Part shown: positions 25,173 through 54,942 of the stretch, in pieces
How the letters are laid out: the number at the start of each line of letters is the position of its first letter
Numbering within the stretch: position 1 is the first letter of the stretch
Position numbers and translations under genes: made by a program
IMG/VR virus record: IMGVR_UViG_3300036770_008686
Coordinates: 62,001 to 126,000 of that record
DNA: 64,000 nt
Strand: one strand, 5' to 3'
DNA from: a virus
Notes under the pieces: model-generated
Seen by the model: only the letters and a program-made list of their open reading frames with translations
The model's database searches: none
Told to the model about the DNA's origin: nothing

Positions 25173-25910
25173 ATGTTTAAATCTTTTGTTCTTAAGAAAA
25201 AAATTAAAAAAATTAAAAATGCAATAAAAAACTTAAGCTTAGAAACAATAAGTGAAAAAGTAGACATCAATATAGTAAAAGATATATGGAAAGACAACAA
25301 AGTAATATATTGGTTAAAATCTAATGGAATAGAAATAGTTACGCCACCTCCATATTCACTTGGAGGAAGTGGAATTGCCTATTTTTTACCAAATAACATG
25401 GTTGTAAAAATAACAGATGATATAGTAGAAGCAAATGTAGCAAAGATGCTTATAAAATCTAAAATAAAACATACAATGATAGATGTTGTTAAAATTAATA
25501 ACTTATATTTAATACTTCAACAAAAGTTAGACTTAAAAAAAACTTCAGAAGATATGAAAACAGCAGCCGATCTAGTTACCGTTATGATAGACGACAACTC
25601 CTTAGAAGAGTTTCCTGATAACAAAGAACTACTAAAAAATATGTGTATAAAAACAATAAAAGAAAACAACTTTCCAATTTCTATTCTAGATAAAATGCTT
25701 TTAATAATTGATACTCTAAAAGAGATAGAAAAAACAACAGGATATTTTCATGACGATGCAGGTCCTACAAACATAGGAACAAAAGATGGCAAAACATATG
25801 TTTTTGACTTAGGTCCAAATAAAACAAAAAGCTACAACCCTATGGAAAGGATTAAAAAAATAAAAACAAAAAGAGAAAAGTTAGGATTAAGCGATCACGA
25901 ATTTGAGTAA
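25173..25910 (+). CDS. Protein-kinase-fold phosphotransferase
   Basis: 245 aa. Kinase landmarks in order: Gly loop SLGGSGIAYF (residues 62-71), catalytic Lys79 in VVKI, Glu86 in DDIVEAN, catalytic loop YFHDDAGPTN (Asp194/195, Asn200), and metal site FDLGPN (Asp212). All key residues are present, so it is probably active. It could phosphorylate a host protein or a small molecule. A TATATAAA box ends six bases before the ATG. Its end overlaps the GT2 gene by 24 bases tail to tail. Confidence 0.82.
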   Translation: MFKSFVLKKKIKKIKNAIKNLSLETISEKVDINIVKDIWKDNKVIYWLKSNGIEIVTPPPYSLGGSGIAYFLPNNMVVKITDDIVEANVAKMLIKSKIKHTMIDVVKINNLYLILQQKLDLKKTSEDMKTAADLVTVMIDDNSLEEFPDNKELLKNMCIKTIKENNFPISILDKMLLIIDTLKEIEKTTGYFHDDAGPTNIGTKDGKTYVFDLGPNKTKSYNPMERIKKIKTKREKLGLSDHEFE

Positions 25911-26873
25911 TTTTTCAAATAAATAATTCAAGTAGTTTTCTACTTTGGAATTCTCTTCTGCACGTATAATAAATTTTATAATCTGCTCTGAGCTAAAGTA
26001 GCTATTAGCAGTAGTATTAAAATCAAAAAAATAAAATAAATTCGATATTTTTTCAAAGTTATTGCTTGGTTTAATATTCAATTTTGTTTTAGGCAAAATA
26101 CTAGATTTTAAAGAGTTTATCTTCTGCTCGGGGCATAAGAATTTTTCAAAATATTTTAAGCATGCACATCTTTCAAGATATCTTATATGAAAACTATTAC
26201 CTAAACTTTTTTTTGACGAATTTTTTTCATGATAATAAACTCTATTTTTTATCATTCCTCCTTTTCCAAGTTCATTGTCACAAATTGTAATACCAACAAT
26301 ATTATCTTCACAACCCCAACCTTCTTTATCGAATGGAGTAAACTCTGGAAAAGGGGATTCTAATAAGACATTCTTTTTGAAAATTCCATATTGGGTTAAT
26401 GCTATTTTGTTTTGACTAATTTTATTTTTTTTTAAACAAAGGTTACGATTATCTTTTGAATATAAAAGGCAAACGTCTTTTAAAGATATCTCTTTTTCAA
26501 GAGTAGTAGAAAAAGAATAATTTTTTGTATAATTTTTATAATCATATCCTAAATATGCGAAATCATTATTATTAGCCATAAATTTATACATACACTCAAT
26601 AGAATTTATTATAGGAACTATATCGGCATCCAACAACAAAACGTAATCATGCAAAGAGTGTCTAACCATATAGTTTCTTGCAAAAGATATACCTGTATTT
26701 GTTTTGCTTAGTGTTTTTTGAATGTCTAGTTTATCCAGATACTCAGTCGAACCATCGTTAGAATTTTGGTCGTAAACAATAATTTCATTTTCAATTTTTA
26801 GTTTTGATAATATCTCTATTGTTTTTTTTAATGTATTTAAACAATTCCAACTCAGTATACATATACTTACCAT
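25887..26873 (-). CDS. Family 2 glycosyltransferase
   Basis: 328 aa. GT-A fold of family GT2: SICILSWNCLNTLKKTIEIL, IVYDQNSNDGSTEYL, NTGISFARNYMV, DXD motif LLLDADIVP. The N-terminal 120 residues are the nucleotide-sugar domain, and the C-terminal half is Lys/Asn-rich. Encoded opposite to the rest of the island, sharing an 18-bp divergent promoter with the sulfotransferase. Confidence 0.92.
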   Translation of the reverse strand: MVSICILSWNCLNTLKKTIEILSKLKIENEIIVYDQNSNDGSTEYLDKLDIQKTLSKTNTGISFARNYMVRHSLHDYVLLLDADIVPIINSIECMYKFMANNNDFAYLGYDYKNYTKNYSFSTTLEKEISLKDVCLLYSKDNRNLCLKKNKISQNKIALTQYGIFKKNVLLESPFPEFTPFDKEGWGCEDNIVGITICDNELGKGGMIKNRVYYHEKNSSKKSLGNSFHIRYLERCACLKYFEKFLCPEQKINSLKSSILPKTKLNIKPSNNFEKISNLFYFFDFNTTANSYFSSEQIIKFIIRAEENSKVENYLNYLFEKLLKFVIA

Positions 26874-26891
26874 TTACGTTATAATATAGTC
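26874..26891. promoter_or_regulatory. 18-bp divergent promoter
   Basis: The whole gap between two divergent ATG codons. TATAAT ends six bases before the sulfotransferase ATG, and on the other strand TATTAT ends seven bases before the GT2 ATG. There is no room for an SD, so both mRNAs would be leaderless if these boxes are used. Confidence 0.5.
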
Positions 26892-27491
26892 ATGATTATT
26901 CATAAAAACAAAATTATTTTTATTCACATACCAAAAACAGCAGGCTTCTCGATAGAAAAATTTCTATATGGAAGAGAACTAGATTCATCTTTTTTTTATG
27001 AAGATATAGTGTATGGCTTAAAAGATGGAAAATACACACAGCACCTAGAATATAGTAGTATCAAAAATTACTACAAAGGCAAAGAAAATATAGAAAAGTA
27101 TTTTAAATTCACATTTGTTAGGAACACATGGGACAGGCTGTTAAGTGCTTATTCCTATTTAAATCCAAATCCAAATAAAGAAAGTTTTTGTAATTATTTA
27201 AAGAAAAAATGTAAAAATTTATATAGAATGAGCGAATGTGATCACTATAATAATCAAATAAGATATATTTTTAATAATAATCAAAAATTTTTAGATTTTA
27301 TAGGATTATTTGAAAACATACAAGAAGATTTTAAAAATCTATGTAATAAAATTAATATTGAGTATAAACCATTACCAATAATTAACAGCTCTAAAAGAAA
27401 AGATTATAAAGAATATTATGACGAAGAAACGATAAATATTGTTAAGGAAACTTACAAAGAAGAAATAGAATACTTTGATTTTAAATTTTAA
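26892..27491 (+). CDS. Sulfotransferase
   Basis: 199 aa. The PAPS-binding 5'-phosphosulfate loop is FIHIPKTAGFSIE and the 3'-phosphate site is FVRNTWDRLLSAYSYL, both hallmarks of the carbohydrate/tyrosine sulfotransferase superfamily. Probably transfers sulfate from PAPS to a glycan made by the neighbouring glycosyltransferases. First gene of a dense plus-strand operon. Confidence 0.93.
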   Translation: MIIHKNKIIFIHIPKTAGFSIEKFLYGRELDSSFFYEDIVYGLKDGKYTQHLEYSSIKNYYKGKENIEKYFKFTFVRNTWDRLLSAYSYLNPNPNKESFCNYLKKKCKNLYRMSECDHYNNQIRYIFNNNQKFLDFIGLFENIQEDFKNLCNKINIEYKPLPIINSSKRKDYKEYYDEETINIVKETYKEEIEYFDFKF

Positions 27492-27519
27492 AAAAGAAAA
27501 ACAAGGAGGTTTTAAAAAA

Positions 27520-28260
27520 ATGAAAATACTAGCTTACTATACTCATGGGTTTTCAAATGAATTTTTACCCATACTAAGACTATCAATAAGAAGCTTGAGA
27601 AAGTACAACAAGATAGACACCTTAGTATTATGTGATGAGCAATTTGAAAAAGATTGTAAGGCAATGGGAGGAATAGAAACTTTAAGCTTAAAAAATTCAA
27701 AAAAACCCGAGGATGCTTCAATGCACAAACTATCTGTTTTTTCTTTTGAAGAAATAAAAAATTACGATAAAGTAATTTTTATAGATAGCGACATAATAAT
27801 AGATGTTAAATTAAATAAAATAATAGAAAAATGTTTAGATGAACAAAAACTATACGCTTGCTCAGAATCAAATGATATCTCTTTACACAGAAATTTATAT
27901 TGGTCGCTAGAAAACTACACAGAAAAAGAAATGGAATTTTTTAAAAAAAATAAAATTTATGTATTTAATGCAGGGTGTTTTGTATTTACTCCAAATCAAG
28001 AATTTAAAACACACTTTCAAGAAATAAAAAATATTATAAAAGAACATAAAGGAAGCTACTTTTATGAACAATCATTTATGAATTTTTATTTTAATAAAAA
28101 AAATCTAGTAGACTACTCTGTTTTAAATGAAAAAAACTATATATTGCATGCGAATGGAGATAAAAAATATAGAAATTCAATAGTGCACTTTTGTGGAAAT
28201 CCTGGGGTTGCGGCAAACAAATTAGAAAGAATGAAAAAATATTTATCTACAATAAAATGA
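27520..28260 (+). CDS. Glycosyltransferase, GT8/glycogenin-like
   Basis: 246 aa from MKILAYYTHGFSNEF; perfect SD AAGGAGG eight bases upstream. DXD motif is VIFIDSDIIID, and a later YEQSFMNFYF and HFCGNPG carry typical GT8 C-terminal metal/substrate residues. Transfers a sugar from a nucleotide donor to an unknown acceptor. Confidence 0.85.
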   Translation: MKILAYYTHGFSNEFLPILRLSIRSLRKYNKIDTLVLCDEQFEKDCKAMGGIETLSLKNSKKPEDASMHKLSVFSFEEIKNYDKVIFIDSDIIIDVKLNKIIEKCLDEQKLYACSESNDISLHRNLYWSLENYTEKEMEFFKKNKIYVFNAGCFVFTPNQEFKTHFQEIKNIIKEHKGSYFYEQSFMNFYFNKKNLVDYSVLNEKNYILHANGDKKYRNSIVHFCGNPGVAANKLERMKKYLSTIK

Positions 28261-28889
28261 AAACAAAAATAATAAGTTTTTACGCAGACATAGAGAATAG
28301 AAATTACTATAGCCTTTGCGGGCAAAAGTTAAAAGAGTCTCTTGAAAAATTCAACATAGAACACGAGATAGAAGAAATAAACTCATCTAACGACTATATG
28401 TTGAATTGCTTAAAAAAGCCTGGCTTTATACTCAAAAAAATACTTGATTGTAAAAAACCTTTAATATGGGTTGACGTGGATACAGATTTTAGATCTCCAT
28501 TTGAAGATTTTGATAAAAATGATTGTGATATAGGGTTTTGTAGTGATACAGGGGATGTAGAGGGTGTAAAGGCCTCTCCAATATATTTTAATTATAACGA
28601 GAACGCTTTGCTTTTTTTAAATAAATGGAAAGAAGAATGCGAAAAAGCCGTAATAGAAAAAAAAACAGAATTAGATCACGATGTAATAAAATACATACTA
28701 TTGCCAGAATTTAATAACAAAATAAAAATAAAAATATTATCAGAAAACTTTATAGATTTTTATAACGGAAAACACATAAAGAGTAGATTATCAAAAAATT
28801 TTGTAACAAAAAACTTAGCACACAAAAAAATAAAAGAAATAAATAGATACAGAAAAGGCTTGAGTAAAAAAGAATATAAAAGCTTATAA
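28257..28889 (+). CDS. Glycosyltransferase with DXD motif
   Basis: 210 aa from MKTKIISFYADIEN (ATGA overlap with the GT8 stop). LIWVDVDTDFRSPF provides a DXD; ELDHDVIKYILLPEF resembles the acceptor-side segment of nucleotide-diphospho-sugar transferases. No signal or membrane segment. Confidence 0.8.
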   Translation: MKTKIISFYADIENRNYYSLCGQKLKESLEKFNIEHEIEEINSSNDYMLNCLKKPGFILKKILDCKKPLIWVDVDTDFRSPFEDFDKNDCDIGFCSDTGDVEGVKASPIYFNYNENALLFLNKWKEECEKAVIEKKTELDHDVIKYILLPEFNNKIKIKILSENFIDFYNGKHIKSRLSKNFVTKNLAHKKIKEINRYRKGLSKKEYKSL

Positions 28890-28899
28890 AGAGGAAAAA

Positions 28900-29595
28900 T
28901 TGTTTTACGAAAAAGAAAAACAAAAAGAAATATTAACCAAAAAACTACTCAATAAGGAGTTTTTTGCTTTAAATAGATTTGGAGAAGGGGAAGTAAGAGT
29001 AATAATGAGCGGAGGAACAGGAGTATACTTGAGATGTATAGCAAAGTCATCTATAAGGGAATGGGAATACAATCCAAAAGAAGACAAGTACTTATACGAA
29101 CAATTATGTGAAAGCTTTTATTATAAAGAAGAAAACTACATAAAAGCATCGGTTGGTGGTGGCAAAAAAAATCAAGAAGAGTTTGTAAAAAAAAGCCTGC
29201 CAAACGAAGAGTTATTTACCACGACATACTTTTATGGAGATGACTATTACAATGATTTTTTCGAAACATACCTTCCTTTAATGCAGAAATATGAGTCCAT
29301 AAACTTTGTGTGTTCTAAACTGGCAAATTATAAAAATGTTAATATAAATTTTAAAAATGTCTACAATAGTTTTGAAATATCGAACGCATGGAAACAAAAA
29401 GAAGAAACTAAAAAAGTAATAGAAGAAATAAGCAAAACAAAAAATTCTGTATATATTTTTTCTGTAGGTTTTAATTCCAAAATAATGATTAAAAAGCTTT
29501 TCCAAGAAAACAAAAACAATGTGTATTATGACTTTGGTGCAAATTTAGACATAAAGCTATATGGAAGAAAAACAAGAGGGAAACACATGCCATGA
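28900..29595 (+). CDS. GT-D fold (DUF1792-like) glycosyltransferase
   Basis: 231 aa, TTG start at 28900 with GAGG upstream. FALNRFGEGEVRVI near the N-terminus and VYIFSVGFNSKIMIKKLFQEN...YDFGANLD near the C-terminus match the DUF1792/GT-D pattern (R-x-G-D/E-G-E; G...K.L......D.G). It overlaps the next gene by ATGA. Confidence 0.78.
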   Translation: MFYEKEKQKEILTKKLLNKEFFALNRFGEGEVRVIMSGGTGVYLRCIAKSSIREWEYNPKEDKYLYEQLCESFYYKEENYIKASVGGGKKNQEEFVKKSLPNEELFTTTYFYGDDYYNDFFETYLPLMQKYESINFVCSKLANYKNVNINFKNVYNSFEISNAWKQKEETKKVIEEISKTKNSVYIFSVGFNSKIMIKKLFQENKNNVYYDFGANLDIKLYGRKTRGKHMP

Positions 29596-30215
29596 ATATT
29601 TTTGTAGAGTATTTTAACCATAAAAATGAAAGAAGAAAAAGTGAAATAGATAAAACTCTTATTACAAATATTAATTTTAATTATATAAATAAATTTTATG
29701 TATTCTCTAATAAAGAAGATTCAGAAGAAGTTAAAAAATTAAATTTTAATAAAAAAATAACAAACGTCATAACAGAAGAAAGATGTACCTTTCAATATAT
29801 TTTTGACTTTGCAAACTCGGTTTGTGGAGAAGAAGAAATTAACATAACAATGAATAACGATATAATATTAAGCAAATCATTTAGCAATGTTAAAATTCCC
29901 AAAGAATGCTTTTTTGCAATAAGTAGATGGGAAAGAAACAACAACAATCATCCTTTTTGCTACAGAACTTGTGATTCCCAAGATTTGTGGATTTGGAGAG
30001 GAAAAAACAAAATGAAAGAATGTAACTTTTATTTCGGAATACTTGGATGCGACAACAGAATAGTACACATAGCAGAAGAATGCGGATATATAACAAGAAA
30101 CCCAGCATACACATATAGATGTCACCACAACCACGAATCCAAAGTAAGAATAGGTTCTAATGATGCAAGCCTAAGATTAAAAGGCCCATATAAAAAGGTT
30201 TGTCCATGTCATTAA
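29592..30215 (+). CDS. Glycan-processing protein with SQDLWIW/CDNRI motif
   Basis: 207 aa. NITMNNDIIL followed by FFAISRWE...CDSQDLWIW...FYFGILGCDNRIVHIAEECGYITRNPAYTYRCHHNHES resembles a domain repeated in glycosyltransferase clusters of viruses and bacteria (SQDvW.., GcDn.., NPs...HH.H). Metal-binding His cluster at the end. A glycosyltransferase role is inferred from motif and context. Confidence 0.8.
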   Translation: MNIFVEYFNHKNERRKSEIDKTLITNINFNYINKFYVFSNKEDSEEVKKLNFNKKITNVITEERCTFQYIFDFANSVCGEEEINITMNNDIILSKSFSNVKIPKECFFAISRWERNNNNHPFCYRTCDSQDLWIWRGKNKMKECNFYFGILGCDNRIVHIAEECGYITRNPAYTYRCHHNHESKVRIGSNDASLRLKGPYKKVCPCH

Positions 30216-30877
30216 AAGTATACACATTTTACACAGACAGTCACAAAAAGCTACTAGAAGAATACTTTATACCCACCTTTAATGAAACAAATAGCGATTT
30301 AAGTTTAGAAGTAAAAAAATTTGAACAAAAATGCAGTTCTGGAAACTATATGTCAAGTGGTTGGTATCAAATAATGATGAACAAGGTGGATTATATTCTA
30401 TCTAGCATAGATGAATCATGGGGAAAAGTTTTTATACACGCAGATTGTGACATTGTTTTTTTTGGATCTATAAAAGAAGATATCTTACAACAAATGGAAG
30501 AAAAAGACATAGCAGCTCAAAATGATGGAAATGAAATTTGTTGTGGATTTTTTGCCTGTAAGGCAAACGAAAAAACAAAAAGTTTATTCGAGCAAGTAAA
30601 AAAAGAGATGAATGAAAAATTCAATGATCAACAAGCAACAAATAAATTAGTCAAAAAATATGTATCGTATAAATATTTAAACGAAAGATACTATAGCATA
30701 TACAGAAATACAAATAAAAAAGTCTGGGAAAAGGGTGTGAATATAAATGAAAAAGAAATTCCAAAAGAAATGCTTGTATATCATGCAAACTGGACCGTTG
30801 GTGTTGAGAACAAAATAGAACTTATGAATAAGGTTAAAAAAATTATCTATGATAATAGAAAAAAACACAATTTATAG
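30206..30877 (+). CDS. Nucleotide-diphospho-sugar transferase
   Basis: 223 aa from MSLKVYTFYTD. FIHADCDIVFFG is a DXD-type site and EICCGFFACKANEKT plus NDQQATN match the PF03407-like family (DXD, then DQ). The start overlaps the preceding gene by ten bases. Member of the same operon. Confidence 0.82.
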   Translation: MSLKVYTFYTDSHKKLLEEYFIPTFNETNSDLSLEVKKFEQKCSSGNYMSSGWYQIMMNKVDYILSSIDESWGKVFIHADCDIVFFGSIKEDILQQMEEKDIAAQNDGNEICCGFFACKANEKTKSLFEQVKKEMNEKFNDQQATNKLVKKYVSYKYLNERYYSIYRNTNKKVWEKGVNINEKEIPKEMLVYHANWTVGVENKIELMNKVKKIIYDNRKKHNL

Positions 30878-31784
30878 CAAGATAAGCGATTTGAGATCCT
30901 ACATATGTAGCGACATTTGTGAAAATCCAAAAAAAATATATGAAGAAATAAAAAAATTAGAAAATAATTTAATGGAAGGAGAGGTAAAAGTTCCCGAGGA
31001 GTTTAAACCCAAGATTAAAGTAACATATCCTCCGGAAAATTACTCTATATTTGAAGATTGGGTATCGGACAACTATACATCTAATTTTAGTAGAAAATAC
31101 CTACCTATTCACTGGACGAGCTATCATGTTAATAATAAATATGGAACAATAAAATCAGTAGTAAAAAGACTGCAGGATTATGTCGATAGCTTGCCCAGAA
31201 ATGAAAAATATTGGACAATTTGCCAATATGACGACGGAGTTTTAATAGACTTCAAAGACTTAGATATTTTAGTTTTTAGTATGAGTAAAAAGCTAGGGGT
31301 GGAGATTCCTTTGGTCTGTATGCCACATTCCTACAATCAAGAGAATAAAAAAAACATATTTGCTTCATTTATAGGAAAAGAAACACATCCAATAAGAAAG
31401 CATGTGCTAAATATTAAAAATTCAAATTATTATATATCAAGAGAAAATCACAATATACAAAAATATTGTGAAATAATGAGCAGATCAATATTTGGTTTGT
31501 GCCCCAGAGGTTATGGATTAAATAGTTTTAGAACATCAGAGTGTATGCAATATGAAACAATACCAGTTTACATAAGCGATGAATTTATAAGTGTTTTTGA
31601 TGCTGATTTTGAAGATTATGGAATAAAAATAAATCAAAAAGAAGCAGACAAAATTGAGCAAATACTAAATAATGTTACAGAAGAAGAAATAGAAAAAAAA
31701 AGAAAAAAAATAAAAGAATATTACAGTAAATATTATACTTATGAAGGCATGATTAAAAATATAGAAAAAAAATTATATGAATAA
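30849..31784 (+). CDS. Exostosin-like (GT47) glycosyltransferase
   Basis: 311 aa. SRSIFGLCPRGYGLNSFRTSECMQYETIPVYISDE is the exostosin/GT47 signature (F.LCPRG.G..S.R..E......PV). N-terminal part contains MPHSYNQENKKNIFASFIG. GT47 enzymes build heparan-sulfate-like and plant glycans, and such genes are uncommon in phages. Overlaps the preceding gene by 29 bases and the duplicated start region of the next. Confidence 0.88.
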   Translation: MIIEKNTIYSKISDLRSYICSDICENPKKIYEEIKKLENNLMEGEVKVPEEFKPKIKVTYPPENYSIFEDWVSDNYTSNFSRKYLPIHWTSYHVNNKYGTIKSVVKRLQDYVDSLPRNEKYWTICQYDDGVLIDFKDLDILVFSMSKKLGVEIPLVCMPHSYNQENKKNIFASFIGKETHPIRKHVLNIKNSNYYISRENHNIQKYCEIMSRSIFGLCPRGYGLNSFRTSECMQYETIPVYISDEFISVFDADFEDYGIKINQKEADKIEQILNNVTEEEIEKKRKKIKEYYSKYYTYEGMIKNIEKKLYE

Positions 31785-31869
31785 AATAGAATTAAACACA
31801 GAAAGAATGCTGGGGTATGGTTTATATGAATAAAATAGAATTAAACACAGAAAGAATGCTAGGGTATGG
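31773..31869 (+). repeat. Tandem duplication of a gene-start region
   Basis: Two 48-bp copies (31773-31820 and 31822-31869) with one mismatch. Each covers TTATATGAATAA, the ATG and the first 13 codons of the methyltransferase. The upstream copy encodes an 18-aa peptide whose stop again overlaps the true start as ATGAATAA. Confidence 0.92.
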
Positions 31870-32332
31870 CTCCTATAACAATGTAAACTACTTACATGGA
31901 TTAGATGATTTATGTAAAAAATATATTAAAAAAACAGATACAATATTAGAATTGGGAACAAACGATGGCATTAGTTCTGCTCTTTTTTCTTTTTATGCTA
32001 AACAAGTTTATACAATAGATTTAAAAGAACCAAGCGAAAGACTAAAAAAAGTTTTAAATGAACATAAAAATATAAAATTTATAAATGGATCTTTTTACGA
32101 AGAAATAAATAAATTAAAAATGAATTTTGAATTTATTTATATAGATGGAAATCATGACTACGACTCTGTCTTATCTGATATTAAATTTTGTATCCCGTTT
32201 TTAAAAAACAATATAATAGGTGGCCATGATTTTTTCGACAACAATTGCGACGTAGCAAAAGCCGTAAAATCATTTTTTTTTAACAAAAAAGTAAATTTAT
32301 TTAAAGATAGTTCTTGGGTGATAGAAATTTAA
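31826..32332 (+). CDS. Class I SAM-dependent methyltransferase
   Basis: 168 aa. Motif I ILELGTNDGISSALF, acidic motif II VYTIDLKEP, motif IV FEFIYIDGNHDYDSVLSDI, a Methyltransf_24-like pattern. The ATG at 31826 is the second copy of a duplicated start region. In a glycan cluster it probably O-methylates a sugar. Confidence 0.88.
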   Translation: MNKIELNTERMLGYGSYNNVNYLHGLDDLCKKYIKKTDTILELGTNDGISSALFSFYAKQVYTIDLKEPSERLKKVLNEHKNIKFINGSFYEEINKLKMNFEFIYIDGNHDYDSVLSDIKFCIPFLKNNIIGGHDFFDNNCDVAKAVKSFFFNKKVNLFKDSSWVIEI

Positions 32333-32347
32333 AAATTGAGGATAAAA

Positions 32348-32956
32348 ATGAAAACAGAGCTATGCAACTTAATGGACAAATTCGGCAGCGACAAAGCTTC
32401 ATACCATAATTATACATTATTTTATTATGATTTATTGAAAGAAAAAAAATATCAAGAAGTAAAAATATTTGAAGTAGGGTTGGGGACAAACAACACTAGC
32501 ATACCATCTAACATGGGGGCAAATGGAAGACCCGGGGCCTCGTTGAGAGCGTGGAAAGAATTTTTTCCAAATGCAAAAATTTACGGAGCAGACATAGACA
32601 AAAATATATTGTTTCACGAAGAAAGAATTAAAACTTTTTTTTGCGACCAAACAGATGAAGTAAGTATAAAAAAAATGTGGGAAAACGATGAATTAAAAAA
32701 TGAAAGTTTTGATCTAATAATAGATGATGGTTTGCATGAAATTAATGCAAACATAAATTTTTTAAAAAATTCATTTAAAAAATTAAAAAATGACTCCGCT
32801 TTTATAATAGAAGATATAATAGCAGATAAAATAGATAGATATAAAGAAAAAATTCAAAATTTATCAAAAACAATGAACTTTGAGTTTGAAATTAAAAACT
32901 TTGATCATACAAACAAATATGATAATTGTATTTGTTTTATTAAAAAATTAAAATAA
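32348..32956 (+). CDS. Class I SAM-dependent methyltransferase
   Basis: 202 aa from MKTELCNLMDKFGSDKASY; SD GAGGA. IFEVGLGTNN (SAM loop), IYGADIDKNIL, FDLIIDDGLHEINANI. The MDKFGSDK...H.Y..LY N-terminus matches CmcI-like or glycan methyltransferases. Likely acts with its neighbours on the same glycan. Confidence 0.88.
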   Translation: MKTELCNLMDKFGSDKASYHNYTLFYYDLLKEKKYQEVKIFEVGLGTNNTSIPSNMGANGRPGASLRAWKEFFPNAKIYGADIDKNILFHEERIKTFFCDQTDEVSIKKMWENDELKNESFDLIIDDGLHEINANINFLKNSFKKLKNDSAFIIEDIIADKIDRYKEKIQNLSKTMNFEFEIKNFDHTNKYDNCICFIKKLK

Positions 32957-32957
32957 A

Positions 32958-33581
32958 ATGATAATACAAAAAATTGATAAAAATAAAAAAATAAGCCCAA
33001 GATATAAAACAATATTAGAAATATTAAAAAACATTCCAGACAAATCAAGTGGAATAGAGGTAGGAGTTTTACATGCAGATCTATCTATTTTTTTACTTGA
33101 AAATTGCTTAAAAATTAAAAAGCTATATTTAATAGATCCTTGGAAAAAATACAACAAAGAAGAATACGTTGACTCTGTTAATGAGAAATCGCAAAAAGAA
33201 TATGACGAAATATATTTGAGTGTAAAGCAAAGAATAAAAAGCCATGAAGAAAGAGTTGAATTGTTAAGAGGCGAGTCAAAGGAATTTGAAAATAAATTTT
33301 CAGAAAATAGTTTAGATTTTATATACTTGGATGCGAATCACATGTACGAAAACGTTTTTAATGATATTTCAACATGGTATCCAAAAATTAAAAAAGGTGG
33401 AATTTTATTTGGAAATGACTTTATGGAAGATGGCTACAAAATTTGGCAAAAAGATGTGTATGGAAAGCCAATTTGTTATGGAGAGTATGGAGTAAGAAGT
33501 GCAGTAAGAGTTTATTGCAAACAAAACCAAATCAATTACAGAAGCCCAGGCGAAAATCAATGGTATATCATAAAAAGATGA
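32958..33581 (+). CDS. Class I SAM-dependent methyltransferase
   Basis: 207 aa. GIEVGVLHADLSIFLLENC (SAM loop), LYLIDPWKKY, LDFIYLDANHMYENVFNDI, FGNDFMEDGY. Methyltransf_24-like. One base after the preceding stop. Its stop touches the minus-strand gene at 33582 with no space for a terminator. Confidence 0.88.
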   Translation: MIIQKIDKNKKISPRYKTILEILKNIPDKSSGIEVGVLHADLSIFLLENCLKIKKLYLIDPWKKYNKEEYVDSVNEKSQKEYDEIYLSVKQRIKSHEERVELLRGESKEFENKFSENSLDFIYLDANHMYENVFNDISTWYPKIKKGGILFGNDFMEDGYKIWQKDVYGKPICYGEYGVRSAVRVYCKQNQINYRSPGENQWYIIKR

Positions 33582-37605: not shown

Positions 37606-38265
37606 CTAATTAGTTTTCTGACCTATGTAGTGTCCTTGGATAACAGGTAAGATTACTATGGTAGGCATGACTCCAGGCTCAGATTGATAAGATAAAAATT
37701 GCGTACCAAAACTTCTTAATAAAACAAGGTGTTTTGTACCTTGGGTAAAAGTAGGAGGAGGTTGACTATACCATTCGTCAACAATATCCCATATTACTGT
37801 ACAGTTAGTAGCTATTTCTAGTTCTAGCAAAACATCAACGCTAACGCCACTATAAAAAAAGCTAAATTGTGCCACAGGAGCATTCTCTGTGGGCCAGCCC
37901 CCGCCTAGAACAAAGTTTACATTACCTTCTTCTAACTGTCCGTCATTATTAAAAGAAAAAGCTCCTATTCTGAGCTTTTGAATTTGTTTGTGTATACTAT
38001 AACTAATACTAATGTTACCACCTAAATAACCAGGACTGAGGGGGGGCATTGGTTTATATATGACAGTAGGGGCAGACAAACCGTTATATATATCCAAGCT
38101 TCCGACTAGTATATTTTGTCCAGGATCTTCTTGAATTATTCCAAATGCTTGACCATTTCCATCAAATATGTTTCCTATGCCGATTGAAGAATTAGTAAAA
38201 ACGGCAGAGGAAGCTGTTAAATTTCCTGTTGTGCTTAAGTCGTTAGAGCTATAATTAGCTGGCAT
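37606..38265 (-). CDS. Fibre/virion protein (219 aa)
   Basis: 219 aa, rich in Gly, Ser, Pro and beta-strand residues. The N-terminal LSTTGNLTASSAVFTNSSIGIGNIF is a pattern seen in tail-fibre N-termini. SD AAAAGGA before ATG 38265. It follows directly on the spliced gene at 38292-39151. Confidence 0.75.
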   Translation of the reverse strand: MPANYSSNDLSTTGNLTASSAVFTNSSIGIGNIFDGNGQAFGIIQEDPGQNILVGSLDIYNGLSAPTVIYKPMPPLSPGYLGGNISISYSIHKQIQKLRIGAFSFNNDGQLEEGNVNFVLGGGWPTENAPVAQFSFFYSGVSVDVLLELEIATNCTVIWDIVDEWYSQPPPTFTQGTKHLVLLRSFGTQFLSYQSEPGVMPTIVILPVIQGHYIGQKTN

Positions 38266-38291: not shown

Positions 38292-38339
38292 TTAAATTAT
38301 ATTTTTTGATGACCTTGACCCATGCTTGTTGACAGCAAT
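38292..38339 (-). CDS. Predicted second exon of the 39151 gene
   Basis: If the group I intron splices after 38564 and after 38340, the frame of exon 1 continues through ATT GCT GTC and adds 15 codons (IAVNKHGSRSSKNII) before TAA. The phase match supports the predicted splice sites, but they are not proved. Confidence 0.5.
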   Translation of the reverse strand: MAVNKHGSRSSKNII

Positions 38340-38563
38340 CATTTTATCCTAAAGTTTCCTATGGGAACGGACTATATCTTCCACGATTTGTGGTAGGGGC
38401 GCTCTTGCCTGTTATTAAGACAAACCATTTTGTCTCAGGTAGTCTCTACACCTTCACTAGAATGGTCTAGTGCTTGGCTCGGTATTGCCATCACCATTAC
38501 GTGTTAAGGTTTCACCGAATTCACCCCTAATGGGCCTTTTATTTAATTGAAAATCACATATTA
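38340..38563 (-). ncRNA. Group I self-splicing intron (subgroup IA-like, no ORF)
   Basis: All four core elements are readable on the minus strand: P AATTCGGTGAAA (38521-38510), Q AATACCGAGCCAAG (38486-38473), R GTAGAGACTACC (38449-38438), S AAGATATAGTCC (38380-38369). P3 pairs AGGGGTG (38528-38522) with CGCCCCT (38401-38395). P7.1 (CCTG/CAGG) and P7.2 (AGACAAA/TTTGTCT) lie between P7 and P3, which is typical of phage IA introns. P8 is CCAC/GTGG. The 5' boundary (GGT/TAA) resembles the T4 td boundary. The P1 guide pairing is not clean, so boundaries are tentative. Confidence 0.88.
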
Positions 38564-39151
38564 ACCTCCCATTGAAGTTTTTACGCTACTACACTCTTTA
38601 CAAACAACTATTAAACTATTTTTAATTATTCCATACCTATATATTTCACACCAACTTTTTTTTCCCAGACATAGCCTGCCTTCGCAATCACCAGGATCTC
38701 CGCAACCATTATCCTCTACTGCTCCGCTATACCTTGGACGAGACAAAGAAACTTCAACGAAAAAATAATCGTTACTCGGAGAGTCAAACAAACTATTTAA
38801 TAAGCTCTGACTAATATATTCAGGTGCAGCTTCTTGAGTTTCTATGGCGTGTATCATGCTACGAGCATTTAAGTCATCTAAATCCACAACACTAGATATT
38901 GTTCCGTTTGGAATTTTTTTTCTTACTCCTTTATAAGTCTTAAAAAATACAAAATTTTTATTTAAATATTGATAGACATGTCTTCTTAAAGCTAACCGTC
39001 TATACCTCGTGCTTGACAAAATAGAACATCCATACTCTATAGCGGTAATTGGCGGGCGGGAATCGGCATTATCTGATACAATGCTACCTATTTTTGCAAA
39101 ATCCGGTGTGGATATGTCGAAATATGGTGGTTGGCCGTATTTTATGCCCAT
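38561..39151 (-). CDS. Virion-region protein, exon 1 of intron-split gene
   Basis: 196 codons before the intron-borne TAA. Starts MGIKYGQPPYFDISTPDFAKIG; contains YRRLALRRHVYQYLNKNFVFF and a Cys-rich end (CGDPGDCEGRLCLGKKSWCEIY, VVCKECSS). The ORF stops exactly at the first codon of the predicted intron, so the real product is probably extended by 15 residues. Weak ribosome site. Function unknown; placed among structural genes. Confidence 0.75.
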   Translation of the reverse strand: MGIKYGQPPYFDISTPDFAKIGSIVSDNADSRPPITAIEYGCSILSSTRYRRLALRRHVYQYLNKNFVFFKTYKGVRKKIPNGTISSVVDLDDLNARSMIHAIETQEAAPEYISQSLLNSLFDSPSNDYFFVEVSLSRPRYSGAVEDNGCGDPGDCEGRLCLGKKSWCEIYRYGIIKNSLIVVCKECSSVKTSMGG

Positions 39152-39160
39152 TAATAAATA

Positions 39161-39202
39161 AACCCTTTTTTACACTACAATTATATAGTGTAAAAAAGGG
39201 TT
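39161..39202 (-). terminator. Terminator between 39231 and 39151
   Basis: Perfect 17-bp arms (39161-39177 with 39186-39202) and an 8-base loop, followed on the minus strand by TTTATTTATT. It separates the GroES-region genes from the virion genes. Confidence 0.8.
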
Positions 39203-39230
39203 TTCTAAAGCAAAAGATATAAATTAAATA

Positions 39231-39833: not shown

Positions 39834-40244
39834 TTAAATTAAGAAACCAGTTTCACTACTCAACATCCATTTTTTTTCACCATAATGGAAATTTCCATTA
39901 TTCCTAAAAAGAAGAACAGTTACAGTATCTGGTATGTGTTTTAGAACTTCGGGCTGATCGTCTATGAAAACAGATATTCCATTTTCTATTATCACTCTCG
40001 CCTTGTCTTCAAATTTTTTAACTAAAAATATTTTGTCATACTTGATATTATTTTCATTTAAGAAGTTTTTTAATTTATCTAAATCAGACCTCATAGAAAC
40101 TATGAATATGTTGCCAGACCAATTATTTGTTAAAATATTAAAAAAAGAAGGAGATTCGTCTATGCACCCATCTACATCTATTCCTAGACTTGGACTATGA
40201 ATTTCAAATAAATTTTTGATAGACTTAATATTTTCTTTCAACAT
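39834..40244 (-). CDS. HAD-superfamily hydrolase
   Basis: 136 aa from MLKENIKSI. Motif I is LGIDVDGCIDE, the Ser of IFIVSMRSD fits motif II, KKFEDKARVI gives motif III Lys, FIDDQPEVL gives motif IV. Cap-less HAD phosphatase, distinct from the one at 11525. ATG 40244 overlaps the preceding stop by ATGTTGA. Confidence 0.85.
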   Translation of the reverse strand: MLKENIKSIKNLFEIHSPSLGIDVDGCIDESPSFFNILTNNWSGNIFIVSMRSDLDKLKNFLNENNIKYDKIFLVKKFEDKARVIIENGISVFIDDQPEVLKHIPDTVTVLLFRNNGNFHYGEKKWMLSSETGFLI

Positions 40245-40426
40245 TGTTGTTTTTCTATTTTCTGTCTTGCTTTGTTCCAATAGTATTCGCTATCGCCCTC
40301 ATTAGGATTTTTTTCCCAAAGAAGGTAGGCCTCTAATTTTATTGCTTCCTCGTCTAAGGAAGTAGGTAGAAGATCCTTGTTTTTCGGTTCATCAAATAAC
40401 TTTTTAAATATATCAATAATTTTCAT
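40238..40426 (-). CDS. DUF2934-like small protein
   Basis: 62 aa. EEAIKLEAYLLWEKNPNEGDSEYYWNKARQKI fits the DUF2934 pattern (A..I...AY.lWe..G.p.G....dW..A...l). Basic C-terminus. Function unknown. Confidence 0.78.
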   Translation of the reverse strand: MKIIDIFKKLFDEPKNKDLLPTSLDEEAIKLEAYLLWEKNPNEGDSEYYWNKARQKIEKQQC

Positions 40427-44773: not shown

Positions 44774-45688
44774 TTATAGTTTTAAAAACTCTTCTATTGC
44801 TTTTTCTTTCATTTTAAATTCAAAATCTATGTCAATTTCGCAATCACCATAAATCTTATATTTGCTTTTAGGATAATCAGCGTGAGCCCTAGGGTTTTTG
44901 CCTTCTCTACTTTCACTATAGTGGAACAAAGGTTTGTATTTACCCCAAGTCTCTTTGCAAGTCAAGAAGGCCTCTTCTTCAACCATTCCATCAGGATAGC
45001 AATTGAAGTGCAAATAATCAAAAGTTATAGGCTTCTTTGTTAAAGAATGAAAATGGTTGTATAACTTATTAACACTCCAACCGGCTGCCTTGTCATCATT
45101 TTCGATAACTATTCTTGACCAACAATTATCGTCCAATTTTTCTGCATTTTTTAAAAATCTATTTACAATAGAAGTTCTATCGCCAACATTATTGTTGATA
45201 TGAAAATTTATAGGAGAATCATAATTTGCAGGACAACCTATTTGATCCATAAACCTAGAATAGAAATTCAATTCTTTTATCGTTCTATTCACAGCATCTT
45301 GGTTTTCGCTTGCCAAGACGTTAAATTCGCTGGGGTGGCAACTTATTCGGACAGGATGAGATATTAAATAATCTTTAATTAAAGAAAAGATTTTCTGTAT
45401 CTCTTCGTAATCAGGAAGTTGCTCCAGCGATAAATCGGCTTTTTCATAAGTTATAAGAGGAAATAAATCACTTGATATTCTATAGCAATAGTTATTTTCA
45501 AAACAATATTTTATTGAATGATAAGTAACATCTATATTGTTTAATATTCTTTTGCTTAGAATTTTTAATGCTTCATCTCTTGGTGTCTCGCTAAATTTTT
45601 TATATGTCATCCTCTGAAACTTTTTGGGAGGATTTTTTTCTCCCAAAGAAAGTATTATGCAACAAACACCATGTCTTATGTTATTCAT
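44774..45688 (-). CDS. uvsE: UV-damage endonuclease (UvdE/UvsE family)
   Basis: 304 aa, the size of bacterial UvsE. TIM-barrel metal ligands are visible: RISCHPSEFNVLAS, NFHINNNVGDR, RIVIENDDK, FDYLHFNCYPDG, LFHYSESREGKNPRAHADY. It nicks DNA 5' to UV photoproducts, starting an alternative excision repair. Unusual in a phage and consistent with a sunlit aquatic host. Overlaps the 42-aa gene upstream by ATGAATAA. Confidence 0.93.
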   Translation of the reverse strand: MNNIRHGVCCIILSLGEKNPPKKFQRMTYKKFSETPRDEALKILSKRILNNIDVTYHSIKYCFENNYCYRISSDLFPLITYEKADLSLEQLPDYEEIQKIFSLIKDYLISHPVRISCHPSEFNVLASENQDAVNRTIKELNFYSRFMDQIGCPANYDSPINFHINNNVGDRTSIVNRFLKNAEKLDDNCWSRIVIENDDKAAGWSVNKLYNHFHSLTKKPITFDYLHFNCYPDGMVEEEAFLTCKETWGKYKPLFHYSESREGKNPRAHADYPKSKYKIYGDCEIDIDFEFKMKEKAIEEFLKL

Positions 45689-52137: not shown

Positions 52138-53145
52138 TTATTCATCTTTATATGTAAAATAATCAGGCCTAACCAAATCCCATATAATATCTTCATAAGG
52201 CTTATCATCATATAACTTGAAAAGAACGCTTGAAAATTTATATTTTTTAGCTTTTATTGCAAATTCTTTTCTGTCCTTGGACAGAATATTTTTATAAACT
52301 TTTTTACAATCTTGATCTATTTCTGAGTAATTTTTAAGTATGGATAATTTTGTTTTTTTAATCCAAGAAAAAATTTCATCCGGAACTCCTTCCAATACTA
52401 GGTCAGAACCGGACTTGAGGCAAGCCCAAATATCTCTGGAGCTGAGGCCGAACAAGACCTTGTGGATTCTAACATACTCTTCAAGCTTTATTTTAAACCT
52501 GTAGCCATCGTCAAACTTAACCACATATCCTTCAAAATTTTTAATATCTGTTTTTAATTCATCTATAGAGTTACAGTCTATTTTTTTACAAGTTTCAAAT
52601 CCAAAATAATTATCGTGTATGTCTATTTCTTTTCCAGTTGCAGTCTCTATGGCCGATAAAAGAATAAGATCCTCTTTTTTGCCGTAGTTAACAACTATTG
52701 TATTTTCTGGGTATATTATTTCAAATAAATAGGTCAAACTTTGATCTAAATTTAGATTTTTACTTTCTAATATTTTATTAGCTCTAATAGATTGTTCGCT
52801 TTCAAAACTACCCCGAGTTGCTATAAAAGGCTTATTTCTTATAAAATAAGATATACCTAAACTTCCATCTATTTTTTCATATACTGTGTATTTTTGTTTA
52901 AGCAGCAAAGAGTCAACTTGACTTTTTACTTCTGAATAATTAAAAAATTTTTTAAAACACCGACCGACGATTTGATAATCTTTGTTGACTATTAATCCTC
53001 TGCAATTGGTAGTAATTTCATTCCAAAAGCATTCATATTGAGTTTTTGGTGTATAGTTTAAAATGTAAAGATCTTCTTGTGGGTGTTTATTTTTTTTAAT
53101 AAACCCATTTTTTAACATTTCTTCTACTAAACAAGAATCAATCAT
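52138..53145 (-). CDS. T4 Rnl1-type RNA ligase
   Basis: 335 aa. NCRGLIVNKDYQIVGRCFKKFFNYSE precedes motif I YEKIDGSLG (Lys nucleophile). Motif III is LFEIIYP, motif IV is EGYVVKF, motif V is RFKIKLEEYV. This order and the N-terminal RG...KFFN are those of T4 Rnl1. Seals broken RNAs such as tRNAs cut by host defence. Adjacent to a metallophosphatase. Confidence 0.9.
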   Translation of the reverse strand: MIDSCLVEEMLKNGFIKKNKHPQEDLYILNYTPKTQYECFWNEITTNCRGLIVNKDYQIVGRCFKKFFNYSEVKSQVDSLLLKQKYTVYEKIDGSLGISYFIRNKPFIATRGSFESEQSIRANKILESKNLNLDQSLTYLFEIIYPENTIVVNYGKKEDLILLSAIETATGKEIDIHDNYFGFETCKKIDCNSIDELKTDIKNFEGYVVKFDDGYRFKIKLEEYVRIHKVLFGLSSRDIWACLKSGSDLVLEGVPDEIFSWIKKTKLSILKNYSEIDQDCKKVYKNILSKDRKEFAIKAKKYKFSSVLFKLYDDKPYEDIIWDLVRPDYFTYKDE

Positions 53146-54033: not shown

Positions 54034-54942
54034 TTATTTAATTTTAAAATCGGGTAAGAGTATTAAATTATTTTTTTTTCCATCAATAAGCAATTCTCTT
54101 GAAATTGGATTTTCAAAAACAGGTTCATTGAAAATTGAATTATTAGGTAAGCACTTAAAATAAGGTTGTTGGCCTCGTTCAATTGCGTTTTTGGAAAAAG
54201 ATTTAAGAAACTCCACAACAGTCAATTGTTCTCCGGACTGCTCAGCTTCTTTCTTTGTTTTGTTCCAAGTTGAAGCAAAAATCCCTCTAACAGTTAGTTT
54301 TTCGGCACTGCTAGACGCCAATATAAGAGCATCTTCAAAAGCATTTTGACTTAAACAATAATCTATTTCATCATTTTTTAAATCAAAAAAATTTCTAAAA
54401 AAAGTATTTTTATTAATTTCAGGCATTCTTACTTCTAAATTATAAACTCTTAATGGCTCTCCTTTTTTATCAAACCCCTCCTCTATGCCCCCAGCAGCAT
54501 GACAAGTATCTATTAAGAGTATTAACCTTTTAACTTTTCCAGCCTTAGAAATAGCTTCAACAGCTTTGCTGAATTTAAAATTACCATTCCTAGCGGTCAT
54601 GCTAAAAGACTTTCCAGATCCTCCACCGTGACTATTTACATATATTAAAAGCGTGCCATTTTCACCAACCAAAGATGTGTAATCTCTAATTTTGCTATAA
54701 ATTTCACTAGAAGTTACATTGTGAAATTTATTACAAACAAATCCTAGCTTTTTATCAACAAAAGACTCTTCCATTAATTGAAGGTTTCTTGTTCTGCCCT
54801 GCTCGTCTGTCATTGTGAAAAGAAGAGCATGATTGCTCGACTTAATATCATAAGGAAAACCGGTAAGGTCAACATCATCAGAAAAAACAAGAGAAGAAAT
54901 TAAAAAAAAAGTGATTGTAAATAAAAATTTGTGATTCTTCAT
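54034..54942 (-). CDS. Secreted caspase-like (C14) cysteine protease
   Basis: 302 aa. Signal peptide (FLFTITFFLISSLVFS, residues 5-21). Caspase fold: NHALLFTM strand, then TLLIYVNSHGGG with catalytic His105 and LILLIDTCHAAGG with catalytic Cys147, the p20 signature. C-terminal part longer than a minimal p20 domain. Such orthocaspase/metacaspase genes are common in Planctomycetes but rare in phages. ATGA overlap with the upstream paralogous gene. Confidence 0.85.
   Translation of the reverse strand: MKNHKFLFTITFFLISSLVFSDDVDLTGFPYDIKSSNHALLFTMTDEQGRTRNLQLMEESFVDKKLGFVCNKFHNVTSSEIYSKIRDYTSLVGENGTLLIYVNSHGGGSGKSFSMTARNGNFKFSKAVEAISKAGKVKRLILLIDTCHAAGGIEEGFDKKGEPLRVYNLEVRMPEINKNTFFRNFFDLKNDEIDYCLSQNAFEDALILASSSAEKLTVRGIFASTWNKTKKEAEQSGEQLTVVEFLKSFSKNAIERGQQPYFKCLPNNSIFNEPVFENPISRELLIDGKKNNLILLPDFKIK

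What the first reader, a model, noticed from the sequence alone, without database searches (positions are those of the whole stretch)
38292..39151. ORF-less group IA intron at the 3' end of a phage virion-region gene
The P, Q, R and S core elements, P3, P7.1, P7.2 and P8 can all be read by eye. The upstream frame stops at the first intron codon, and splicing at the proposed sites would add 15 in-frame codons. Group I introns usually sit in conserved active-site codons of essential genes; here it is close to the end of an unknown virion-region gene, with a guide pairing (P1) that is not clean.
Basis: partly seen in the sequence, partly recalled or inferred. Interest (0 to 1): 0.75.

Follow-up and report, generated by a model that had tools for sequence, protein, structure and literature searches.

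The report
Phage ribozyme with swapped splice sites
A real catalytic-RNA (group I intron) core sits between two phage particle genes, but its guide sequence matches a site just after the intron instead of before it, so it probably cuts the messenger RNA between the genes and may release a roughly 20-letter RNA circle, an arrangement I found described in nature only once, in coral mitochondria.

Summary
The group IA core is real: Rfam RF00028, 56.0 bits (cut-off 50), window 38584-38348, minus strand. The upstream gene ends with its own stop, and the guide sequence (IGS, GGCCCAUU, 38536-38529) has no U.G-type partner upstream. Its partner is AUGGGU|C at 38323-38317, downstream of P9 and 22 nt past the terminal G (38340). 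So the 3' splice site precedes the 5' splice site: a circularly permuted group I intron with a 22-nt exon. I found the same plan in 12 other phage contigs or records, in four IGS classes, with compensating changes in P1 and in an outer stem around the exon. Pairing downstream is significant and pairing upstream is not; canonical controls show the reverse. On a core-only tree of 105 phage group I cores, all 13 fall in one 15-tip clade (support 0.97). A further tip, L073, turned out to have a 26/27 match downstream, with C.A at the wobble position. Most likely it cuts late mRNA between two virion genes, gives the downstream mRNA a 5' G, and circularises the tiny exon. Catalysis is untested.

The parts
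38561..39151 (-). upstream virion-region gene, 196 aa, with its own stop codon (TAA 38563-38561)
   Evidence: ORF list; homologues at the same position in L092, L142, L017, L026, L009, L010, L014, 21-46% identity, shared RRYVYQY / IYRYG motifs
38348..38584 (-). group I catalytic core, RF00028 match (its P1 part, above about 38540, is not supported)
   Evidence: 56.0 bits, gathering 50
38529..38536 (-). internal guide sequence GGCCCAUU, directly 5' of P3
   Evidence: position relative to P3; covaries with the downstream partner
38524..38528 (-). P3 5' strand AGGGG (pairs 38399-38395)
   Evidence: sequence and Rfam alignment
38440..38444 (-). P7 5' strand GACUA (pairs UAGUC 38374-38370)
   Evidence: Rfam alignment
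38381..38393 (-). P8 hairpin CCAC-AAAUC-GUGG
   Evidence: sequence
38348..38364 (-). P9 hairpin with GAAA loop
   Evidence: Rfam alignment
38340..38340 (-). predicted terminal G (omega-G), 3' splice site between 38340 and 38339
   Evidence: same place after P9 as the psbA intron of S-SRM01, where the reading frame fixes the site; P9.0 GU/AU
38318..38339 (-). predicted 22-nt exon AUUGCUGUCAACAAGCAUGGGU (small hairpin plus P1 strand)
   Evidence: lies between the two predicted splice sites; 18-22 nt in most relatives
38317..38323 (-). P1 partner of the IGS: AUGGGU|C, cut predicted between 38318 and 38317 (U38318.G38535 wobble)
   Evidence: 7 bp with the IGS, -11.3 kcal/mol; same geometry in relatives
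38338..38342 (-). outer stem 5' strand AUGAU
   Evidence: pairs GUCAU 38313-38309; stem kept with changed sequence in relatives, all except L026
38309..38313 (-). outer stem 3' strand GUCAU
   Evidence: as above
37606..38265 (-). downstream virion-region gene, 219 aa
   Evidence: ORF list; 42% identical stretch in a 649-aa open frame of L003

Best explanation
A group IA ribozyme with circularly permuted splice sites in the untranslated stretch between two co-directional virion genes. Shown by sequence: core, IGS next to P3, IGS partner downstream of P9 with a conserved U.G wobble, an omega-G-like G upstream of that partner, and a covarying stem that brings the two together. Inferred mechanism: (1) the IGS pairs with AUGGGU|C downstream; (2) GTP attacks after U38318, cutting the mRNA between the genes and leaving a 5' G (pppG if GTP is used) on the downstream mRNA; (3) the freed U 3'-OH attacks after G38340, closing the 22-nt exon into a circle and leaving the ribozyme as the 3' end of the upstream mRNA. 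Nothing is spliced into the upstream protein. The likely benefit, least certain, is setting stability or translation of two late mRNAs separately.
For: Core: RF00028 56 bits. Downstream P1 with U.G in all 13 members, changed on both sides between IGS classes: +1 pair C-G, G-C or A-U; -1 G-C or A-U; -4 U-A, A-U, U-G. Compensatory case: L005 AGGUCCU/AGGAU|C against L015 GGUCCA/UGGAU|C. Outer stem: 9 distinct versions, 45/45 cells paired. Shuffle tests: members downstream p=2e-9 (seven representatives 1.5e-6), upstream p=0.997; canonical controls upstream 9e-10, downstream 0.65. Fully automatic version: 7/13 clade members p<=0.05 against 5/90 others, Fisher 5e-5. Core-only tree puts all in one clade, support 0.97; clade member L073, not recognised before the tree, has a 26/27-nt downstream partner with C.A at the wobble position; longest run 19 nt, maximum in 300 shuffles 12. 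Upstream genes end before or at the IGS. In L169 and L026 the next start codon lies 2 nt after the predicted cut. The engineered self-targeting construct with the same order (ribozyme, exon, target) makes circles in vitro with P1 alone (PMC11394858).
Against: No biochemistry or RNA reads. P1 is short (4-7 bp) and single members are only weakly significant. In four of the 14 sequences position -4 is mismatched, and L008/L010 have a mismatch at -3. The stem alignment was made by hand, so its covariation counts are optimistic. The omega-G assignment is firm only where P9.0 fits (window, L092, L116, L169, L008-L014) and not in L167, L017, L005, L015. L026 lacks the outer stem in the usual place. 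L073 lies on the strand opposite to its neighbouring genes. The exon hairpin of the window is not unusually stable on its own (z 0.12). Canonical controls were chosen partly for a clear upstream P1.
Confidence: 0.7

Rival explanations
1. Same permuted architecture, but only the first step matters: a GTP-dependent cut between the genes (3'-end maker or 5'-G adder), with no functional circle.
For: Cut site is 2 nt before the AUG in L169 and L026; exon length varies from 18 to about 80 nt, so its content seems unimportant; omega-G pairing is imperfect in some members.
Against: A G suitable as omega-G, at the usual distance after P9, is found in every member; the small exon keeps its own hairpin in L008-L010 with changed sequence.
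Confidence: 0.3
2. Canonical intron: 5' splice site next to the stop codon, splicing adds 15 codons to the upstream protein.
For: Frame arithmetic holds; the 5' strand AAUGGG could pair with CCCAUU, -7.7 kcal/mol, or GGAGGUU with UGAUUUUC.
Against: AAUGGG has no U.G at a splice site; the GGAGGUU register uses a different IGS, shifts the frame and has no counterpart in relatives; no significant upstream partner in any member; upstream ORFs end by their own stops with no shared downstream extension.
Confidence: 0.08
3. A canonical intron's target site: the downstream match is an integration (reverse-splicing) or trans-splicing target that happens to lie beside the intron.
For: The downstream strand looks like an IGS-matched target.
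Against: The match is kept at a fixed place and by compensating changes across unrelated upstream genes, which fits a cis interaction.
Confidence: 0.07
4. Inactive relic of a group I intron.
For: Lowest Rfam score of the matches in the set (56 bits); one member (L092) gives no Rfam match in its genome search.
Against: Core helices and P1/outer stem are maintained by compensating changes across diverse phages.
Confidence: 0.05

Closest known systems
Group IA introns of phages (e.g. psbA introns of Synechococcus phage S-SRM01, terminase intron of Vibrio phage 11895-B1)
   Same: Same core, P7.1/P7.2, P9 and 3' end; IGS next to P3
   Different: There P1 forms with the upstream exon and splicing restores an interrupted gene
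ND5-717 of mushroom-coral mitochondria (PMC6545197), described there as the first natural group I intron removed by back-splicing
   Same: Permuted order of splice sites
   Different: There the permutation goes with a giant intron in a circular mitochondrial genome and the exons are coding; here the whole unit is about 230 nt with a tiny non-coding exon and is shared by many phages
[quoted passage not shown]
   Same: Stand-alone permuted ribozymes that do not interrupt an ORF and make RNA circles
   Different: Unrelated ribozyme class; here it is group I, in phages, directly beside a stop codon
Engineered self-targeting-and-splicing (STS) and permuted intron-exon constructs (PMC11394858, PMC10415121)
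   Same: Ribozyme first, then exon, then IGS-matched cut site; optional antisense arms, like L073's 27-nt arm
   Different: Man-made, from Tetrahymena; meant to circularise a chosen RNA
Lariat-capping (GIR1) ribozyme
   Same: A group I descendant that processes an mRNA end instead of splicing
   Different: No match here (best RF01807 12.2 bits elsewhere, cut-off 100); its reaction uses an internal 2'-OH (own knowledge and PMC8637638)

Membership tests
Group I catalytic intron (RF00028, subgroup IA) | Conserved core P3-P9 with P, Q, R, S elements | tested here: met
   56.0 bits, gathering 50
Group I catalytic intron (RF00028, subgroup IA) | P7.1/P7.2 between P7 and P3' | tested here: met
   read from sequence 38439-38400; aligned as an insertion by cmscan
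Group I catalytic intron (RF00028, subgroup IA) | P1 with a U.G at the end of the upstream exon | tested here: not met
   no significant upstream partner in the window (p 0.64) or in the other 12 members
Group I catalytic intron (RF00028, subgroup IA) | Exon ligation restores the interrupted gene | tested here: not met
   comparative only: upstream gene complete, own stop
Group I catalytic intron (RF00028, subgroup IA) | Self-splicing activity | not testable with these tools
   needs in vitro transcription
Circularly permuted (back-splicing) group I intron | 3' splice site lies upstream of the 5' splice site in the transcript | tested here: met
   predicted sites 38340/38339 and 38318/38317; same order in relatives
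Circularly permuted (back-splicing) group I intron | U.G (or equivalent) wobble at the 5' splice site | tested here: met
   14 of 14 sequences; C.A in L073
Circularly permuted (back-splicing) group I intron | Circular exon product | not testable with these tools
   no RNA data
IStron (group I intron with IS605-type transposon) | TnpA/TnpB gene inside the element | tested here: not met
   no ORF inside 38536-38309; neighbours are virion-region genes
Lariat-capping ribozyme (RF01807) | Match to the GIR1 model | tested here: not met
   12.2 bits against 100, and at another place

The most novel reading that the evidence does not exclude
A phage-wide family of naturally permuted, self-circularising group I ribozymes that split late polycistronic mRNAs between virion genes, put a 5' G on the downstream mRNA (in L169 and L026 two bases before its start codon), and release RNA circles of about 20 nt.
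Probability: 0.4. Interest if true: 0.9.

Novelty: new variant of a known kind. Interest (0 to 1): 0.8.

Why it matters
Permuted group I introns are made in the laboratory to produce circular RNA. In the open library I found only one natural case, in coral mitochondria (PMC6545197), and no phage or bacterial family. A compact natural version, about 230 nt with a 20-nt exon, present in a cultured Flavobacterium phage (immuto), could be tested quickly. It would show group I introns recruited to process mRNA instead of splicing genes, would give new parts for circular-RNA production, and would mean that 'intron at the end of a gene' calls need checking for a downstream P1.

Tried and rejected
Canonical splicing at GGT|TAA or GGTT|AA: no counterpart in relatives. 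C-terminal coding motif GSxS shared with L017 and immuto: first looked like a conserved C-terminus, but it follows from the P1 strand GGGUCAAR, and frames and lengths differ. Homologues of the upstream protein by single-sequence search: none in viral contigs or phage records; found only through the ribozyme and then with A2. No homologue without the ribozyme was found, so the intron-free end of the gene could not be compared. PHROGs and Pfam gave no identity for the upstream gene. The AlphaFold model of the upstream protein is poor (mean pLDDT 48), so no fold search was run. immuto's upstream gene shows no detectable homology to the others. Search of bacterial genomes with a GGCCC-type pattern: none. 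crAss-like, Klebsiella and Pelagibacter phage introns looked at: not recognised as this type. Five cores outside the clade reach p<=0.05 in the automatic test (L061, L085, L136, L031, L097), about the number expected by chance; not followed.

Full report
OBSERVATION. The minus strand of 38584-38348 matches the Rfam group I intron model at 56.0 bits, above its gathering score of 50; the quick gathering scan of the whole window missed it. P3 (AGGGG 38528-38524 with CCCCU 38399-38395), P7 (GACUA/UAGUC), P8, P9 with a GAAA loop, and the P7.1/P7.2 pair typical of subgroup IA read directly from the sequence. The upstream ORF ends at TAA 38563-38561, and the 15-codon frame from 38339 to 38292 exists.

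WHAT IS WRONG WITH THE SPLICING MODEL. A group I intron finds its 5' splice site by pairing the guide (IGS), which lies just 5' of P3, with the end of the upstream exon, leaving a U.G wobble. Here the IGS is GGCCCAUU (38536-38529). Upstream, AAUGGG can pair with part of it but leaves no U.G; the register GGAGGUU/UGAUUUUC uses a different guide, breaks the reading frame and is not seen in relatives. Downstream of P9 lies AUGGGU|C (38323-38317), which pairs with GGCCCAU over 7 bp including U38318.G38535 (-11.3 kcal/mol against -7.7 for the best upstream match).

RELATIVES. A blastn search with the intron found related cores in cultured phages, among them Flavobacterium phage immuto and the psbA introns of Synechococcus phage S-SRM01. 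A scan of viral contigs with a core pattern, blind to flanks, gave ten loci. Apart from L011 (5' side cut off by the contig end) and the canonical pair L012/L016, each has the same plan as the window: the upstream ORF ends by its own stop, the IGS sits next to P3, and the IGS partner lies downstream of P9. Further scans added L092, L142, L116, L026, L167/L171 and L169/L170 (sequences). The stop codon lies 5-35 nt before the IGS in those measured and overlaps it in L167/L171. The upstream genes of window, L092, L142, L017, L026, L009, L010 and L014 belong to one protein family (RRYVYQY and IYRYG motifs; window to L092 45% identity, to the more distant ones 21-28%). The immuto pair (L005, L015) has an upstream gene with no detectable homology.

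ARCHITECTURE. After P9 comes, in order: a G in the position of the psbA terminal G, a short exon (18-22 nt in most; about 60-80 nt in L017, L116 and L169), a P1 strand ending in U, then 1-4 nt (such as CAAR or AAA) and a strand that pairs with the sequence around the terminal G. That outer stem has nine distinct versions, for example AUGAU/GUCAU, AUGUU/AACAU, AAGCU/AGCUU, AAGUC/GGCUU, AGUUG/CAACU, AAUGA/UCAUU, with all 45 cells paired. In P1 the U.G is invariant in 14 of 14 sequences while its neighbours change together: +1 is C-G, G-C or A-U; -1 is G-C or A-U; -4 is U-A, A-U, U-G or C-G where paired. L005 and L015 differ by a compensating change in the same position. The stem alignment was made by hand; the counts lean towards the model.

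TESTS. Shuffling each flank: for the 13 permuted candidates the downstream P1 plus outer stem is significant (Fisher 2e-9; 1.5e-6 for seven representatives) and the upstream P1 is not (0.997). Nine canonical introns show the opposite (9e-10 upstream, 0.65 downstream); these controls were picked partly for a clear upstream P1. An automatic version without hand-set guides finds p<=0.05 in 7 of 13 clade members and 5 of 90 others (Fisher 5e-5). A tree of 105 phage group I cores, built from P3 to P7' only and so blind to guide and partner, puts all 13 in one clade of 15 tips, support 0.97. The other two tips are L124, which I read as a canonical intron in a ribonucleotide-reductase-like gene (from its flanking translation, not searched), and L073. 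L073 had not been recognised: its guide region matches a stretch downstream over 26 of 27 nt, and the only mismatch is C.A at the wobble position. That C.A can replace U.G at a group I splice site is from my own knowledge (a search found no open paper).

MECHANISM. Shown: the order of the two splice sites is swapped, with 22 nt between them in the window. Inferred: GTP attacks after U38318, the downstream mRNA starts with an added G, U38318 then attacks after G38340, and the 22 nt close into a circle; the ribozyme stays as the 3' end of the upstream mRNA. An engineered construct with this order makes circles in vitro with the P1 pairing alone (PMC11394858). Biological use is least certain. In L169 and L026 the next gene's AUG begins 2 nt after the cut, and in L169 the outer stem covers the start codon region, so cutting could expose it. 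I favour separation of two late mRNAs with different ends.

KNOWN AND NEW. Natural circularly permuted introns are known for group II (PMC8637638). For group I the open library gave one natural case, ND5-717 of coral mitochondria, called the first by its authors (PMC6545197). Searches for permuted group I introns in phages or bacteria returned only engineered systems. Most subscription papers and bioRxiv preprints are not covered, so novelty is provisional. I file it as a new variant of a known kind: a group IA ribozyme by its core, not a canonical intron by its tested P1.

OPEN POINTS. No RNA evidence. The terminal G is less sure in L167, L017, L005 and L015. In L008-L010 the exon contains a second copy of the guide (GCCUGUG) that can pair with the P1 strand (folds), possibly an internal switch; other classes lack it. 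No version of the upstream gene without the ribozyme was found.

Noticed in passing
G000:C1:31063-31249 (L002 1442-1712, minus strand), outside the window: A second group I intron (50.7 bits) in the same phage genome, inside a tRNA gene that ARAGORN calls Leu(UAA) with a 196-nt intron, although a long variable arm is not obvious.
   Followed up: partly
L002 854-1339 (+): HNH endonuclease ORF (PF13391, E 1.1e-06) about 100 bases from that tRNA, opposite strand.
   Followed up: no
window 39157-39204: Long near-perfect hairpin (-27 kcal/mol, z -7.7) directly before the upstream gene's ATG (39151); its 3' arm holds the only Shine-Dalgarno-like AAGGG.
   Followed up: partly
L073 5924-6239 (minus strand): 27-nt inverted repeat around a group I core; the stretch between terminal G and cut site holds a 16-codon basic mini-ORF (MTIMRKHVQMNKLRKN); the element lies opposite to the neighbouring genes.
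   Followed up: partly
L008, L009, L010 exon region: The exon carries a copy of the guide (GCCUGUG) that can pair with the P1 strand, as if to hold the cut site back.
   Followed up: no
window 54034-54942 (-): Caspase-like peptidase (PF00656, E 6.2e-06) with a signal-like N-terminus, in a phage.
   Followed up: no
window 44774-45688 (-): UV-damage endonuclease UvdE (PF03851, E 2.2e-37) in a phage.
   Followed up: no
window 52138-53145 (-) and 39834-40280 (-): T4-type RNA ligase/tail fibre attachment protein (E 8.9e-70) and a weak polynucleotide-kinase-like match: possible RNA repair pair.
   Followed up: no
window 25887-33581: Run of glycosyltransferase- and methyltransferase-like ORFs, mostly on the plus strand, opposite to most of the window (by eye).
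   Followed up: no
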